Assembly: GCF_016744025.1 (NCBI RefSeq)
Contig: NZ_JADGFC010000012.1
Location: 1 to 34,337, forward strand
Reading direction: 5' to 3'
DNA length: 34,337 bases
From: Sulfurimonas sp.
Lineage (GTDB): Bacteria > Campylobacterota > Campylobacteria > Campylobacterales > Sulfurimonadaceae
The notes under the pieces were generated by a model. That model had not been told where the DNA came from. It saw only the letters and a list, made by a program, of their open reading frames with translations, and made no database searches. Position 1 is the first letter of the stretch. Every line of letters begins with the position of its first letter. This document shows, piece after piece, positions 3,726 through 13,566 of the stretch. Both the position numbers and the translations under genes were made by a program.

Positions 3726-4085
3726 ATGCATACACCATGTTCAACACCTCTCGAACTAATGAGAAGTAGATATGAAGCCTTTGTCAAAGAGGATTGGGAC
3801 TATATTGTTGAGACTTCAATAAAACAAAAAATTCAAGATTTTAAAGATATAAATTCTACAGAGTGGTTAAAGCTAGATGTTCTCAATGCTTATGATGATA
3901 TAGTTGAATTTAAAGCATACTACAGAGAAAATGCTAAGATATACGTTTTACATGAAAAGAGTAGTTTTGTAAAAGTTGATGGTTTATGGAAATATCTAGA
4001 TGGAGAGCTTTTCAATTCTAAAATTGAGCGAAATGAAACTTGTCCATGTGGAAGTACAAAAAAGTTCAAGAAGTGTTGTGCATAA
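3726..4085 (+). CDS. YchJ-like protein with C-terminal SEC-C motif
   Basis: A 119-residue protein related to the YchJ (UPF0225) family. The core MRSRYEAFVKEDWDYIVETS is the NTF2-like middle part of YchJ, and the last residues (about 103-119) form a SEC-C zinc-binding motif, CPCGSTKKFKKCC. Unlike Escherichia coli YchJ there is no N-terminal SEC-C motif; the protein begins directly at the core with an isolated Cys (HTPCSTPLELM). SEC-C motifs bind zinc and in SecA contact SecB and ribosomes; the role of this small protein is not known. A perfect TATAAT precedes it. It lies alone between divergent pta and the ferritin gene. Confidence 0.75.
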   Translation: MHTPCSTPLELMRSRYEAFVKEDWDYIVETSIKQKIQDFKDINSTEWLKLDVLNAYDDIVEFKAYYRENAKIYVLHEKSSFVKVDGLWKYLDGELFNSKIERNETCPCGSTKKFKKCCA

Positions 4086-4142
4086 TAATTTATAGAGGAT
4101 TAATACACTTTACCCTAAAATAAAAAAAAATAGGAGTTTACT

Positions 4143-4649
4143 GTGATATCTAAAAAAATACAAAAAGGCTTGTCTTCTCAGCTAAACCAAGAGTTCTATT
4201 CGGCTTATCTTTATCTTGCTATGTCTGCATATTGTAATCATTCAGACTTTAATGGTGCTGCTAACTGGCTTAAGATGCAGTATGAAGAAGAACACATGCA
4301 TGCTACTAAGATATACAACTATCTAGTAGAACAAGGTGTACATGTATCTCTAAAAGAGATAGCTAAACCACCTAAAAGTTTTGGAACTCTGTTAAATGTT
4401 TTTCAACTTAGTTTACAACATGAACAGATGATGACATCTAGGCTAAATAATCTAAGTGATTTGGCACTAAAAGAAAAAGATCATGCGACTTACAATCTAC
4501 TTCAGTGGTTTGTTAATGAGCAAGTCGAAGAAGAGTCTTCAGTAAATGAGATTATCTCGAAAATCAAACTTGTTAAAGACGATGGATATGGTCTGCTTAT
4601 GATAGATAATGAACTTCACCAAAGAGCAACTCCTTCACCTATAAACTAA
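4143..4649 (+). CDS. ftn: Non-haem ferritin
   Basis: An iron-storage ferritin of 168 residues, the normal length for bacterial FtnA. It forms a 24-subunit cage that oxidises Fe(II) and stores it as a mineral. Ferroxidase ligands are visible: Glu in NQEFYSAYLYLAMS (helix A), the EEEHMHA cluster (helix B, about residues 48-54), and NEQVEEE (helix D). Translation starts at GTG (4143) with AGGAG at 4132-4136, a good spacing, giving MISKKIQKGL, the usual ferritin start. A perfect hairpin overlaps the stop codon and probably ends transcription. Confidence 0.95.
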   Translation: MISKKIQKGLSSQLNQEFYSAYLYLAMSAYCNHSDFNGAANWLKMQYEEEHMHATKIYNYLVEQGVHVSLKEIAKPPKSFGTLLNVFQLSLQHEQMMTSRLNNLSDLALKEKDHATYNLLQWFVNEQVEEESSVNEIISKIKLVKDDGYGLLMIDNELHQRATPSPIN

Positions 4650-4667
4650 ATAATATTTAGTTTATAG
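4639..4667. terminator. Hairpin between convergent ftn and GNAT genes
   Basis: A 13-bp perfect stem: CTATAAACTAAAT (4639-4651), loop AAT, ATTTAGTTTATAG (4655-4667). It contains the ftn stop codon and lies before the end of the convergent GNAT gene, so it could act in both directions. The stem is AT-rich and no long T run follows, so termination strength is uncertain. Confidence 0.55.
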
Positions 4668-4680
4668 AGTCTTAATAACT

Positions 4681-5100
4681 CTAATTAACGCTCTTTAAAA
4701 AGATATAACTTTTTTTATCAAAACCATGCTTTTCGTAAAATCTATGTGCATCTTCTCTCTCAAAGTTAGAAGATAAAACTATATTTTGGCACATGCATGT
4801 TTTTGCATAATCATTTAGAAAATCGAGCATCATAACTCCATATCCACCATTTCTATATTTTTCATCACTCACAAGCTCAAAAACATATAGATGTCTCTTA
4901 TGATAAAGGTTTGTTTGGACAGCGACACCGGCATAAGTAATAAGTTCTTCGCCATCCATAATACCAAACATTTTATATTCCATATGTCTCATATCATATA
5001 TTAAGTCTTCAAACTCTTTATAACTAAGGGTTGGTCTGAGTTGCTTTAACACATCATAAACCGTATATAATTCTTTTAAATCTAATTCTCTTATTTGCAT
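4681..5100 (-). CDS. GNAT-family N-acetyltransferase
   Basis: A 139-residue single-domain acetyltransferase. The acetyl-CoA pyrophosphate-binding motif A is clear: FELVSDEKYRNGGYGVMML (R-x-x-G-x-G near residues 82-87), followed by the alpha helix LDFLNDYAKT and the C-terminal motif DAHRFYEKHGFDKKSY typical of the fold. The N-terminal half matches GNAT beta strands (GIMDGEELITYAGVAV). The acceptor cannot be told from sequence. The gene stands alone, convergent with ftn. Confidence 0.85.
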   Translation of the reverse strand: MQIRELDLKELYTVYDVLKQLRPTLSYKEFEDLIYDMRHMEYKMFGIMDGEELITYAGVAVQTNLYHKRHLYVFELVSDEKYRNGGYGVMMLDFLNDYAKTCMCQNIVLSSNFEREDAHRFYEKHGFDKKSYIFLKSVN

Positions 5101-5281: not shown

Positions 5282-5515
5282 GTGAATATAAAAAGTATTA
5301 AATTTAAAGTAATTGCATTGTTAGCAGTTTCACTTCTTGTAATGACTCTGAGTATTATGTCTATATCTATAAGTAGAGCTTCAGACTCTTTAGTCAAAAG
5401 TAATATGGCACTTCTAGATGCAGTAAAAGAGTCTAAAAAAGAGCATATAGTTGACTTTGCTAGCTCTATTGAAAATTTATTACTCTCTAGAACTGCGGAC
5501 TCTACTACAGTTTAA
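5282..5515 (+). CDS. Truncated chemoreceptor N terminus (TM1 plus sensor start)
   Basis: A 77-residue reading frame ending at the premature TAA (5513-5515). Residues about 8-30 (FKVIALLAVSLLVMTLSIMS region) form TM1 or a signal anchor, and the rest begins the periplasmic helix. It has the only good ribosome binding site of the broken locus, so a short membrane peptide may be made. It is best seen as part of the pseudogene 5282-7338. Confidence 0.5.
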   Translation: MNIKSIKFKVIALLAVSLLVMTLSIMSISISRASDSLVKSNMALLDAVKESKKEHIVDFASSIENLLLSRTADSTTV

Positions 5516-5518
5516 TCT

Positions 5519-6361
5519 ATGTGGGCTTTAGATGAGGGCTTTGAAGAACTAGAAGAGATGCAAGAAGTATCAACAGATGATATTAAAGCTGCCCTTATCA
5601 AACACTATGATAATGAGTATTTAAATAAGGTAAACTTTAAAATAAAAGGTGCAAAACCAAAAAAAGAAACCGAAGAATACTTACCAAAAAGTAAAAGTGC
5701 TCAAATAGCTCAATACTTATACATTGTAGAGAATGAACATAAGATTGGAGAAAAAGAAAAACTAGTAATGAGTAAAAAGCACAAAGAAGAATACTCTACT
5801 ACTCATGTTCAAGTTCATCCGGCATATAAACAGATATTAGATCACTATGGACTATATGATATATTTATAGTAAATGCAAAAGGTGATTTGGATGAAGCTT
5901 TGGTTGAGAGGTGGGTTTATGTTAAGCCTGAATATAGTTTAAATATAGATGCTGGGCTGACATGGGCTGAAAGCATGGAAGATACTCCGTATAAGCAAGA
6001 AAGTTGGTCACTTAGAAAAAGTGAAAATAGTGATGGACTTGAATATATTGATTGTTCTGAACTTGTAAGTAGATATTTGCATAAAATTGGATGGTCTAAA
6101 GAAGTAAGACCAAGAAACACACAGGGATTACTTAATTATGCAGAGAGTCATCCCGATAAGTTAGTAGAGAATACCGGTACTCTTAAAAAAGGTGATATTT
6201 TTGTATGGAGAAAATCTAATGGTGGGCACACAGGAATTATTAAAAATTATAACAGTGAAACTAATATAGTCACAACTATAGAGGCTATTAGTGAAACAAG
6301 TCAAAGCACACATCCTGGAATAAATTTTCATGAAGTTTCAATATATGACTATCATTACTAA
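5519..6361 (+). CDS. Chimeric ORF: chemoreceptor sensor fragment fused to NlpC/P60-like domain
   Basis: A 280-residue frame. Residues 1-124 continue the chemoreceptor periplasmic sensor, up to [12 protein letters not shown]. Residues about 125-280 are foreign to that family and resemble an NlpC/P60 cysteine peptidase domain of the kind found at the ends of Rhs-type and phage proteins: [12 protein letters not shown] (putative nucleophile Cys179), a proline-arginine loop ([11 protein letters not shown]), [18 protein letters not shown] (His237) and a third polar residue around TTIEA. NlpC/P60 enzymes cut peptide bonds in peptidoglycan stem peptides. The ATG lies three bases after the premature TAA and has no ribosome binding site, so expression could only come from re-initiation or stop readthrough. 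The same frame as TM1 would place the peptidase domain in the periplasm if the stop were read. Confidence 0.55.
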
Positions 6362-6570
6362 ATACTCTTCAAGATGCTTCTTATAATTTAGCTAAAGGAG
6401 AAGGTGATTTAACAAGTCAAATAATAGTTCCTGAGGGTGATGAAATTTCTGAAGTAGCTCAAAATATAAATGCTTTTATTGATAAAGTTCGCAGTACAGT
6501 ATCCCAAGCTAAAACTTCATCTTCTCAAAATACAGATATTTCCCAAACACTATCCGAGACTTCATCAAGC

Positions 6571-7338
6571 ATGAAAGTAAAAGCACAAGAAGAGAGTAAT
6601 CTGGTAAATAAGGTATCAGTTGAAGGTCAAGATCTTAAAGATATTCTTACTTTTTCAATTGAACAAGCAAAAACTACAAAAGAAGATATCAATTTAGCTG
6701 GAGAGATACTTAAAGGTGCAAACGAACAAATAGTTGAATTGGCAACAGATATTCAAGTACGTGCCCAAGAGGAAATAGAGTTATCACATAAACTAGAGCA
6801 ATTAAGCGCAGATGCCACTCAGGTTAAAGATGTATTAGTAATTATCGCAGATATTGCCGATCAAACAAATTTATTAGCCTTAAATGCTGCTATTGAAGCT
6901 GCTCGTGCAGGTGAGCATGGACGTGGATTTGCTGTTGTTGCTGATGAAGTTCGTAAACTTGCGGAGAGAACTCAAAAAACACTCAGCGAGATTAATGCGA
7001 CAATCAGTGTTATAGTTCAGTCTATTATGGACGCTAGTGAAAGTACTTCTAAAAATGCTCAAGCCACTGAGAAATTATCTAAAGATGCAAGTAATACTGA
7101 AAATGAAATCAGTACAAGTATGCAATCAATAGAACGCTCTATCGTTCAAGTAGATGAAACAGTTACAGGATATATTAAAAATTCTCAAACTGTAGAATCT
7201 ATGATTCATAAGGTTTCAGAAATACAAGAGATATCAACAGAAAATAAAAAAAGTATGGATGACATCTCAGATGCGTCTTCTAAATTGACACAAATGACTA
7301 TAAATCTAAATGATATGCTTAAAGGTTATAAAACTTAG
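6571..7338 (+). CDS. Orphan chemoreceptor cytoplasmic signalling domain
   Basis: A 255-residue 3' remnant. The frame is open further up, from about 6358, and starts with the HAMP-end motif [13 protein letters not shown] and [14 protein letters not shown], which has no usable start; the first ATG is at 6571. It holds the complete MA domain with the highly conserved hairpin tip [20 protein letters not shown], then [19 protein letters not shown], the region that binds CheA and CheW. With TM1, TM2 and HAMP missing, any product would be a soluble receptor tail. Soluble receptors exist in this class, but the visible wreckage upstream argues that this one is a remnant. It is part of the pseudogene 5282-7338. 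Confidence 0.55.
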
Positions 7339-11887: not shown

Positions 11888-12559
11888 ATGAAAGATGAGA
11901 AACTAGAATCTATAAAAAAATTAAATTTTTTTAAGTCTTTAGATAGTGAACAACTTCAAGAAATAAAAAGTATTTCTAATATAGTTGAGTATCCTAAAGG
12001 ATCTATACTATACTATGAAAACGACACTTTTAACAAAATCTTTTTTTTAGTTTCTGGAGTATTAAAAGTCTACAAAATTGATAAATTTGAAAATGAAATT
12101 TTCCTATACCACATTCACAAAAACTCTCTTATCTCTGAATTAACAAGCTTAGACAATGACTCTATCTACTGTTACTCAAATTCAGAGTTTATGGAAGACA
12201 GTATAATTATTGAAGTAAATTTTACAAAATTTAAAGAAAAATTTCTAGCTAACAATATACTTAATAATGAATTTATAAATGAAATTCTATTAAAAACTCA
12301 TCAACTACACTGTGTTGTAAATAGAGAACTTGTTTTTGATGCCACTGCCAAAGTTGCATTTATGATAAGTGAAGATTTAGAAATGTTTAACTCTTTAAAA
12401 AGACAAGAAGTCTCTTTTATGCTACATATTCAACCTGAAACACTTTCGAGAGTTTTGAAAAAATTAAAAAGAAGTGAAATCATAGAGGTAGAAAACTCTA
12501 ATATTTCTATTTTAGATTATGAAAAATTAAATAATATATTTAGAGGTGAACAATTATGA
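11888..12559 (+). CDS. Crp/Fnr-family transcriptional regulator, possible nap regulator
   Basis: A 223-residue regulator with an N-terminal cyclic-nucleotide-binding-type beta-roll (about residues 12-120: FFKSLDSEQLQEIKSIS, YPKGSILYYEND, FFLVSGVLKVYKI), a dimer helix, and a C-terminal winged helix with recognition region HIQPETLSRVLKKLKRSEII (about 177-196). It has only two cysteines, so it cannot hold the four-Cys [4Fe-4S] cluster of FNR; it looks more like the NnrR/DNR/NssR type, which senses NO-related signals. The cAMP-binding arginine-serine motif is not evident. Its stop overlaps the start of the P-box sensor gene (ATGA), and a perfect TTGAC-N4-GTCAA box stands before napA, so control of nap is a reasonable inference. 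Confidence 0.85.
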   Translation: MKDEKLESIKKLNFFKSLDSEQLQEIKSISNIVEYPKGSILYYENDTFNKIFFLVSGVLKVYKIDKFENEIFLYHIHKNSLISELTSLDNDSIYCYSNSEFMEDSIIIEVNFTKFKEKFLANNILNNEFINEILLKTHQLHCVVNRELVFDATAKVAFMISEDLEMFNSLKRQEVSFMLHIQPETLSRVLKKLKRSEIIEVENSNISILDYEKLNNIFRGEQL

Positions 12560-13566
12560 AAAAAGCAACTAGTATAAGTACAAAAATCAAAGTATTAGGT
12601 GCTCTTCTTATTGTATTAATGCTTAGTGTAATAGCTACCACAATATATTTAAACCAACAAAATGAAAAAGATGCCCTGATAATTAACATTGCAGGAAAGC
12701 AGAGGATGCTTACACAAAAAATGTCAAAGAATGTTTTTTATATACACTATAGCTCTAACAAAGATTTTTATGAACTAAATTCTGCTATCGATGAATTTAT
12801 AAAAGGTCTCAATACTTTAAGACATGGTGATTCAGATAAAAATATCTCTCCAGTTCCTACATATAAGATATCATTACAACAGATAGAAATAAATAAGCTT
12901 TGGGAACATTTTTATGAAAATATACAGAACTTCAAACTATATACTACTTCAGATTTAAATAGAAAAGTTGAACTTGAAGAAATTATTACTTCTATATATA
13001 TGGACAACACTATCCTTTTAGATAATGTAGATAAATTAGTAACCATGTATACTGATTATAGTGAAGACAAAACTAACTTTATCAAAACATTTCAGTACAC
13101 CGCTGGAATTATATTAATTATATTATTTTTGTACTCTCTTTTACAGTTACGTTCTATTGAGTCTCATGTTGATGCCTTTATGCAATACTCAAGAATGCTT
13201 ATAAATAATGAAGATATCTCAAATCTAAAACCACTACAACTAGAAGATGCAAGTGAGACTGAAATTGTTGAAGTAAGTGATACTATTAACTGTTTTATAC
13301 AAAAAGTTAATACTGCTATGGATTATTCTAATGGTGCATTACTTCAGTCTGAAAAAGCTGCTTCTAAATTAGAAGAGCTTACAGATGAGTTTGATTCTAT
13401 CATTGATGAATTAAAAGACAAGTCTTTAGTTCATAAACATCTTAATAATAGTGAAGATATAGTTATAGAATCAACGGAAGAACTCATGAACTCCACAAAA
13501 AAGCTATCTAACTTGAAGCGAGAGTTAGAAAAACTAACAAAAAGTTGCCAAGAAGCTAGAATATAA
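12556..13566 (+). CDS. PilJ/NarX-type P-box membrane sensor lacking an output domain
   Basis: A 336-residue inner-membrane protein. TM1 (about 12-32) is followed by a periplasmic domain whose first helix carries IINIAGKQRMLTQKMSK (about 42-58), the P-box of nitrate sensors NarX and NarQ and of the PilJ N-terminal domain; the conserved Arg50 matches the nitrate-contacting arginine position of NarQ. TM2 is at about 182-198. The remaining 138 residues are cytoplasmic helices, including a coiled coil, without histidine kinase, MA, GGDEF or other known output. It is coupled by a four-base overlap to the Crp/Fnr gene and lies just before napA, so it may report nitrate to that regulator or to another partner. 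The function is inferred, not shown. Confidence 0.8.
   Translation: MKKATSISTKIKVLGALLIVLMLSVIATTIYLNQQNEKDALIINIAGKQRMLTQKMSKNVFYIHYSSNKDFYELNSAIDEFIKGLNTLRHGDSDKNISPVPTYKISLQQIEINKLWEHFYENIQNFKLYTTSDLNRKVELEEIITSIYMDNTILLDNVDKLVTMYTDYSEDKTNFIKTFQYTAGIILIILFLYSLLQLRSIESHVDAFMQYSRMLINNEDISNLKPLQLEDASETEIVEVSDTINCFIQKVNTAMDYSNGALLQSEKAASKLEELTDEFDSIIDELKDKSLVHKHLNNSEDIVIESTEELMNSTKKLSNLKRELEKLTKSCQEARI

What the first reader, a model, noticed from the sequence alone, without database searches (positions are those of the whole stretch)
5891..6361. NlpC/P60-like peptidase domain spliced in-frame into a chemoreceptor sensor
The chemoreceptor sensor reads normally to NAKGDL (about 5890), then switches to an NlpC/P60-like domain with DCSEL (Cys179 of the ORF) and GGHTG (His237), ends with its own stop, and the receptor resumes at the HAMP end in another frame ([18 protein letters not shown]). 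The middle of the receptor was replaced rather than merely interrupted. The peptidase part is in frame with TM1 and the sensor, so apart from the TAA at 5513 it would make a membrane-anchored periplasmic peptidoglycan hydrolase. This could be recombination with an Rhs or phage effector tip, or a new sensor-hydrolase architecture now inactivated.
Basis: partly seen in the sequence, partly recalled or inferred. Interest (0 to 1): 0.75.

Follow-up and report, generated by a model that had tools for sequence, protein, structure and literature searches.

The report
Foreign hydrolase fragment in broken chemoreceptor
In one bacterium the middle of a chemoreceptor gene has been swapped for a ~470-base scrap of foreign DNA encoding the cell-wall-cutting tip of a probable inter-bacterial weapon, leaving a dead gene; this is a neat fossil of gene transfer rather than a new kind of receptor.

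Summary
Window 5282-7338 is a methyl-accepting chemotaxis receptor with a nonsense codon (TAA 5513-5515), in which about 680 nt (227 codons: rest of the sensor, TM2, start of HAMP) is replaced by about 470 nt encoding a CHAP cysteine-peptidase domain (Pfam CHAP E=3.6e-7, above cut-off; NlpC/P60 only 0.02). Intact receptors lie in the same place (GNAT upstream, ABC-F downstream) in four congeners examined. The replaced part is nowhere else in this genome, and the CHAP segment is in none of 134 congeners or the ~400 phylum genomes sampled. Its full-length relatives (34-51% identical) form the extreme C-terminus of large Bacteroidota proteins that look like injected peptidoglycan-hydrolase effectors (one directly downstream of a PAAR gene; candidate immunity genes follow).

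Best explanation: a short piece of effector-gene DNA replaced the receptor's middle by illegitimate (indel-replacement) recombination. The result is a pseudogene: upstream stop, frame lost at the right junction, no TM2, remaining 280-aa ORF without TM or signal, CHAP truncated. The 'new sensor-hydrolase architecture' is not supported. Misassembly cannot be excluded without reads, but two junctions inside 0.5 kb make it unlikely.

The parts
5282..5512 (+). N-terminal end of the receptor pseudogene (TM1 and first part of sensor), GTG start
   Evidence: translation; 84-70% aa identity over 5282-5890 to the five closest congener receptors
5513..5515 (+). nonsense codon TAA where all five close orthologues have Gln
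   Evidence: Q78*
5516..5887 (+). rest of the retained sensor part; left junction at 5877-5887
5888..6357 (+). foreign segment replacing about 680 nt of receptor; encodes a CHAP cysteine-peptidase domain, Cys 6053-6055, His 6227-6229, Glu 6281-6283
   Evidence: Pfam CHAP E 3.6e-7; alignment with effector tips; boundaries
6359..6361 (+). stop codon of the CHAP frame, at or made by the right junction with receptor DNA (CTAAATACT)
6358..7338 (+). receptor remnant, other frame: HAMP end, MCP signalling domain, stop
   Evidence: HAMP, MCPsignal E 2.7e-33; 80-85% identity to close congeners
5519..6361 (+). 280-aa ORF spanning sensor remnant and CHAP; no TM or signal peptide seen; not considered functional

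Best explanation
A horizontally acquired short DNA segment, the 3' end of a peptidoglycan-hydrolase effector gene of the type found in Bacteroidota, replaced the middle of an ordinary chemoreceptor gene by illegitimate (insertion coupled with deletion) recombination, probably after uptake of free DNA. The gene also carries a nonsense codon and is a recently inactivated pseudogene; the CHAP piece is a passenger and does nothing. Shown: replacement, boundaries, homology, synteny, loss of frame, absence elsewhere in the genomes searched. Inferred: DNA uptake, illegitimate recombination, order of events, lack of function, identity of the donor.
For: Intact orthologues with the same neighbours in four congeners; clean switch of homology at 5877-5887 and 6350-6357 with ~680 nt missing; missing part not elsewhere in G000, best 35% identity; CHAP segment single copy in G000, absent from 134 congeners and 396 other phylum genomes; the rest of the Tamlana effector and any PAAR gene absent from G000, so no sign that it moved from within it. 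The relatives with a long open frame carry CHAP at the C-terminus of large effector-like proteins. The insert starts inside the effector homology and ends before the conserved YF.P tail, as a random fragment would. Receptor remnants have more private substitutions than orthologues (15/215 vs 1-4 of 201-204 in the C-terminal part), as expected after loss of constraint. Published homology-facilitated illegitimate recombination gives insertions coupled with deletions of similar size, about 1 kb each (PMC3240628); small replacement segments, often in membrane-protein genes, are common in bacterial genomes (PMC2884548).
Against: No donor with near-identical DNA was found, so junction microhomology cannot be measured. 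Codon usage of the insert is within, at the low end of, the host's range, so composition does not mark it as foreign. dN/dS of the remnants is still low (0.07-0.17), so inactivation must be recent. No reads were available.
Confidence: 0.8

Rival explanations
1. Assembly or amplification chimera: reads of a co-occurring bacterium joined into the receptor.
For: Draft genome of 252 contigs; the fusion is unique among genomes searched.
Against: Two separate false joins within 470 nt, with the receptor resuming at the orthologous place, would be needed; the displaced receptor middle is on no other contig, though an unassembled piece could be missing; the extra nonsense codon and raised substitution load fit a real pseudogene.
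Confidence: 0.12
2. A functional new membrane-anchored sensor-hydrolase (or a freshly made CHAP protein started at the TTG at 5888 behind AAAGGTGAT), used for cell-wall remodelling.
For: CHAP frame open, catalytic Cys/His/Glu kept; in frame with the sensor; a Shine-Dalgarno-like AAAGG before a TTG.
Against: TAA 5513 separates it from TM1; no signal peptide on the 280-aa or TTG ORF, so no access to peptidoglycan; CHAP tail truncated; no other genome searched has it.
Confidence: 0.04
3. A degraded remnant of a larger mobile element or prophage insertion carrying a tail-tip or endolysin CHAP, later trimmed by deletions on both sides.
For: Weak PHROG matches to endolysin and minor tail protein families.
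Against: No phage, plasmid or close viral-contig match to the insert; no integrase or other phage genes next to it and no flanking repeats typical of an element; PHROG matches can reflect the general CHAP fold.
Confidence: 0.04

Closest known systems
CHAP domain (PF05257) at the C-terminus of PAAR-linked / injection-type peptidoglycan-hydrolase effectors of Bacteroidota (e.g. Tamlana agarivorans 1251-aa protein, L016)
   Same: About 50% identity over most of the insert, same catalytic motifs DCSEL / GH.G / EA
   Different: Here only the tip is present, without the ~1070-residue N-terminal part, the PAAR gene or the following candidate immunity gene, and without the last residues
Products of homology-facilitated or double illegitimate recombination (insertion coupled with deletion)
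   Same: Foreign segment replaces a resident segment of similar size (470 vs about 680 nt)
   Different: Donor DNA unknown, so one-sided homology and microhomology could not be shown
Ordinary HAMP-MCP chemoreceptors of the genus (L005-L015, L030-L033)
   Same: 80-85% identical N- and C-terminal parts in the nearest ones, same neighbours
   Different: Middle 227 codons gone, nonsense codon, frame broken

Membership tests
CHAP domain (PF05257) | profile score above the curated cut-off | tested here: met
   31 bits vs 26, E 3.6e-7
CHAP domain (PF05257) | catalytic Cys and His conserved | tested here: met
   C55, H113 and also E131 invariant in alignments
CHAP domain (PF05257) | papain-like fold | tested here: inconclusive
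   AlphaFold models from 2-4 sequences have mean pLDDT 37-42; order of elements (helix at Cys, strands at His/Glu) agrees but is not reliable
NlpC/P60 (PF00877) | profile score above the curated cut-off | tested here: not met
   15.4 bits vs 23
T6SS/PAAR-type peptidoglycan effector | effector domain attached to or encoded beside a delivery part, with immunity gene | tested here: not met
   true of L016 (PAAR upstream, DUF5991 protein downstream) but in this genome no PAAR and no effector body
Functional MCP chemoreceptor | one open frame TM1-sensor-TM2-HAMP-signalling domain | tested here: not met
   TAA at 5513, TM2 missing, frame change at 6358
Homology-facilitated illegitimate recombination | 3-10 bp microhomology at the illegitimate junction, homology at the other end | not testable with these tools
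   no donor DNA found

The most novel reading that the evidence does not exclude
The fused frame, or a CHAP protein started at TTG 5888, is made and acts as a domesticated cell-wall hydrolase or as a decoy against the cognate effector: a first step of toxin-domain capture by a receptor gene.
Probability: 0.03. Interest if true: 0.7.

Novelty: new member of a known kind. Interest (0 to 1): 0.2.

Why it matters
It is a clear, datable example of a short foreign segment replacing part of a resident gene across phylum distance. It suggests that scraps of effector genes from competing bacteria can enter campylobacterote genomes by uptake and illegitimate recombination. It also warns that such fusions can be mistaken for new domain architectures.

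Tried and rejected
Origin from another place in the same genome: rejected, the CHAP segment and the effector body have no other copy. Phage or plasmid source: no match. Swap with the receptor middle elsewhere in the assembly: not found. Second CHAP gene of G000 (contig C251, L023): unrelated small CHAP protein, not the donor. L017 (Actinomycetota) hit: a 31-residue match in a stretch without an open CHAP frame, taken as chance. L036: distant endolysin-like CHAP of a viral contig. Codon usage as a sign of origin: inconclusive. Structure prediction: too poor for a fold search, so none was run. Literature searches for a known CHAP-chemoreceptor fusion or a described Bacteroidota CHAP effector gave nothing to the point.

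Full report
What is there. The window lies in a draft genome of 2.93 Mb in 252 contigs and is a whole contig, C132 positions 1-34337. From the GTG at 5282 an MCP receptor reads TM1 and sensor, broken by TAA at 5513-5515 where the five close orthologues have Gln. The same frame continues to NAKGDL (to 5890) and then runs into an unrelated sequence with DCSEL and GGHTG, ending at TAA 6359-6361. In another frame the receptor resumes at [11 protein letters not shown] from 6358 and runs through HAMP and the signalling domain to 7338.

What the insert is. Pfam names it CHAP (E 3.6e-7, 31 bits, cut-off 26); NLPC_P60 stays below its cut-off. A scan of one genome per species (GTDB) found one true relative, the C-terminus of a 1251-aa Tamlana agarivorans protein, about 50% identical. 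That gene follows a PAAR gene directly, and a DUF5991 protein (candidate immunity) follows it. Searching its family and the viral-contig collection gave further relatives at the very C-terminus of large proteins: L028 (open frame of 1345, cut off at the locus edge), L034 (1317 aa) and L035 (1307 aa), plus L027 (389 aa). L035 has a glycoside-hydrolase-19-like stretch before CHAP (24.0 bits, just under the 25.5 cut-off), and lipoprotein-like genes follow L034 and L028. That these are effectors is inference from architecture. The invariant residues include D54-C55-S56-E57, G112-H113, E131-A132. The relatives end in a Y-F-x-P strand that the window copy lacks, so the piece is cut at or just after its last strand.

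What it replaced. Receptors similar over the sensor stretch occur in a minority of congeners (25 of 100 genomes have a match of any strength, the window's own genome included; the nearest are 83, 80 and 73% identical). In the four examined the neighbours are the same: GNAT gene upstream, ABC-F gene downstream. DNA similarity stops at window 5877-5887 and resumes at 6350-6357; the orthologues have about 673-690 nt in between, 681 nt by protein matches. So about 680 nt (rest of sensor, TM2, first part of HAMP) were exchanged for about 470 nt. The lost part is not elsewhere in the genome (best 35% identity).

Is it unique and foreign? CHAP of this type occurs once in the genome, not in 134 other congeners, nor in the other genomes of a 397-genome sample of the phylum. 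No PAAR gene and no effector body are found in the genome (one search has no positive control). Phage and plasmid collections have no match. Codon usage is at the low end of the host range (2 of 47 host windows lower) and equally compatible with a small Tamlana table: inconclusive.

How it came about. An insertion coupled with a deletion of similar size is the known outcome of homology-facilitated illegitimate recombination during natural transformation (on average 1 kb in, 1 kb out, mostly with 3-10 bp microhomology; PMC3240628). Short variable segments, abundant in genes for membrane proteins, are common in bacterial genomes and were attributed to illegitimate recombination (PMC2884548). This is the best-supported mechanism but is inferred; the donor DNA is unknown and microhomology could not be measured.

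Does it do anything? Probably not. The only frame joining sensor and CHAP begins after the stop codon and shows no TM or signal peptide; a TTG start at 5888 behind AAAGGTGAT would give a cytoplasmic CHAP fragment with no peptidoglycan to cut. The receptor remnants carry more private amino-acid changes than the intact orthologues (8/126 vs 2-5 of 120-123 in the N-terminal part, the stop, the start codon and a junction residue included; 15/215 vs 1-4 of 201-204 in the C-terminal part), though overall dN/dS remains low, which points to recent inactivation.

Verdict. Observation confirmed, interpretation partly right: an effector-like tip recombined into a receptor that is now a pseudogene. Ordinary in kind, instructive as an example. 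Misassembly remains possible (about 0.12) until reads are checked.

Noticed in passing
L023:1225-2378 (contig C251 of the window's genome): A second, unrelated 211-aa CHAP protein directly followed by an adjoining 172-aa gene with a signal-peptide-like start; could be a toxin-immunity or lysis pair.
   Followed up: partly
window 5868-5889 and 6389-6410: The left junction (AAGGTGATTT) repeats a stretch of the HAMP part of the same receptor, whereas close orthologues have GGTGATGTT at the left place. Possibly a trace of the recombination, possibly chance.
   Followed up: partly
window 11888-13566: A Crp/Fnr-type regulator overlapping a PilJ/NarX-like sensor-domain protein without a recognised kinase domain, just upstream of nap genes; probably a nitrate-responsive pair.
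   Followed up: partly
L030-L033 compared with window 3726-5100: The ferritin gene between the SEC-C and GNAT genes was matched only in L032; L030 and L031 keep the neighbours without it.
   Followed up: no
L034, L035, L016, L028: A family of large Bacteroidota proteins with a C-terminal CHAP domain, in part preceded by glycosidase-like stretches and followed by lipoprotein genes, two of them on contigs filed as viral; they look like bifunctional peptidoglycan effectors of injection systems.
   Followed up: partly
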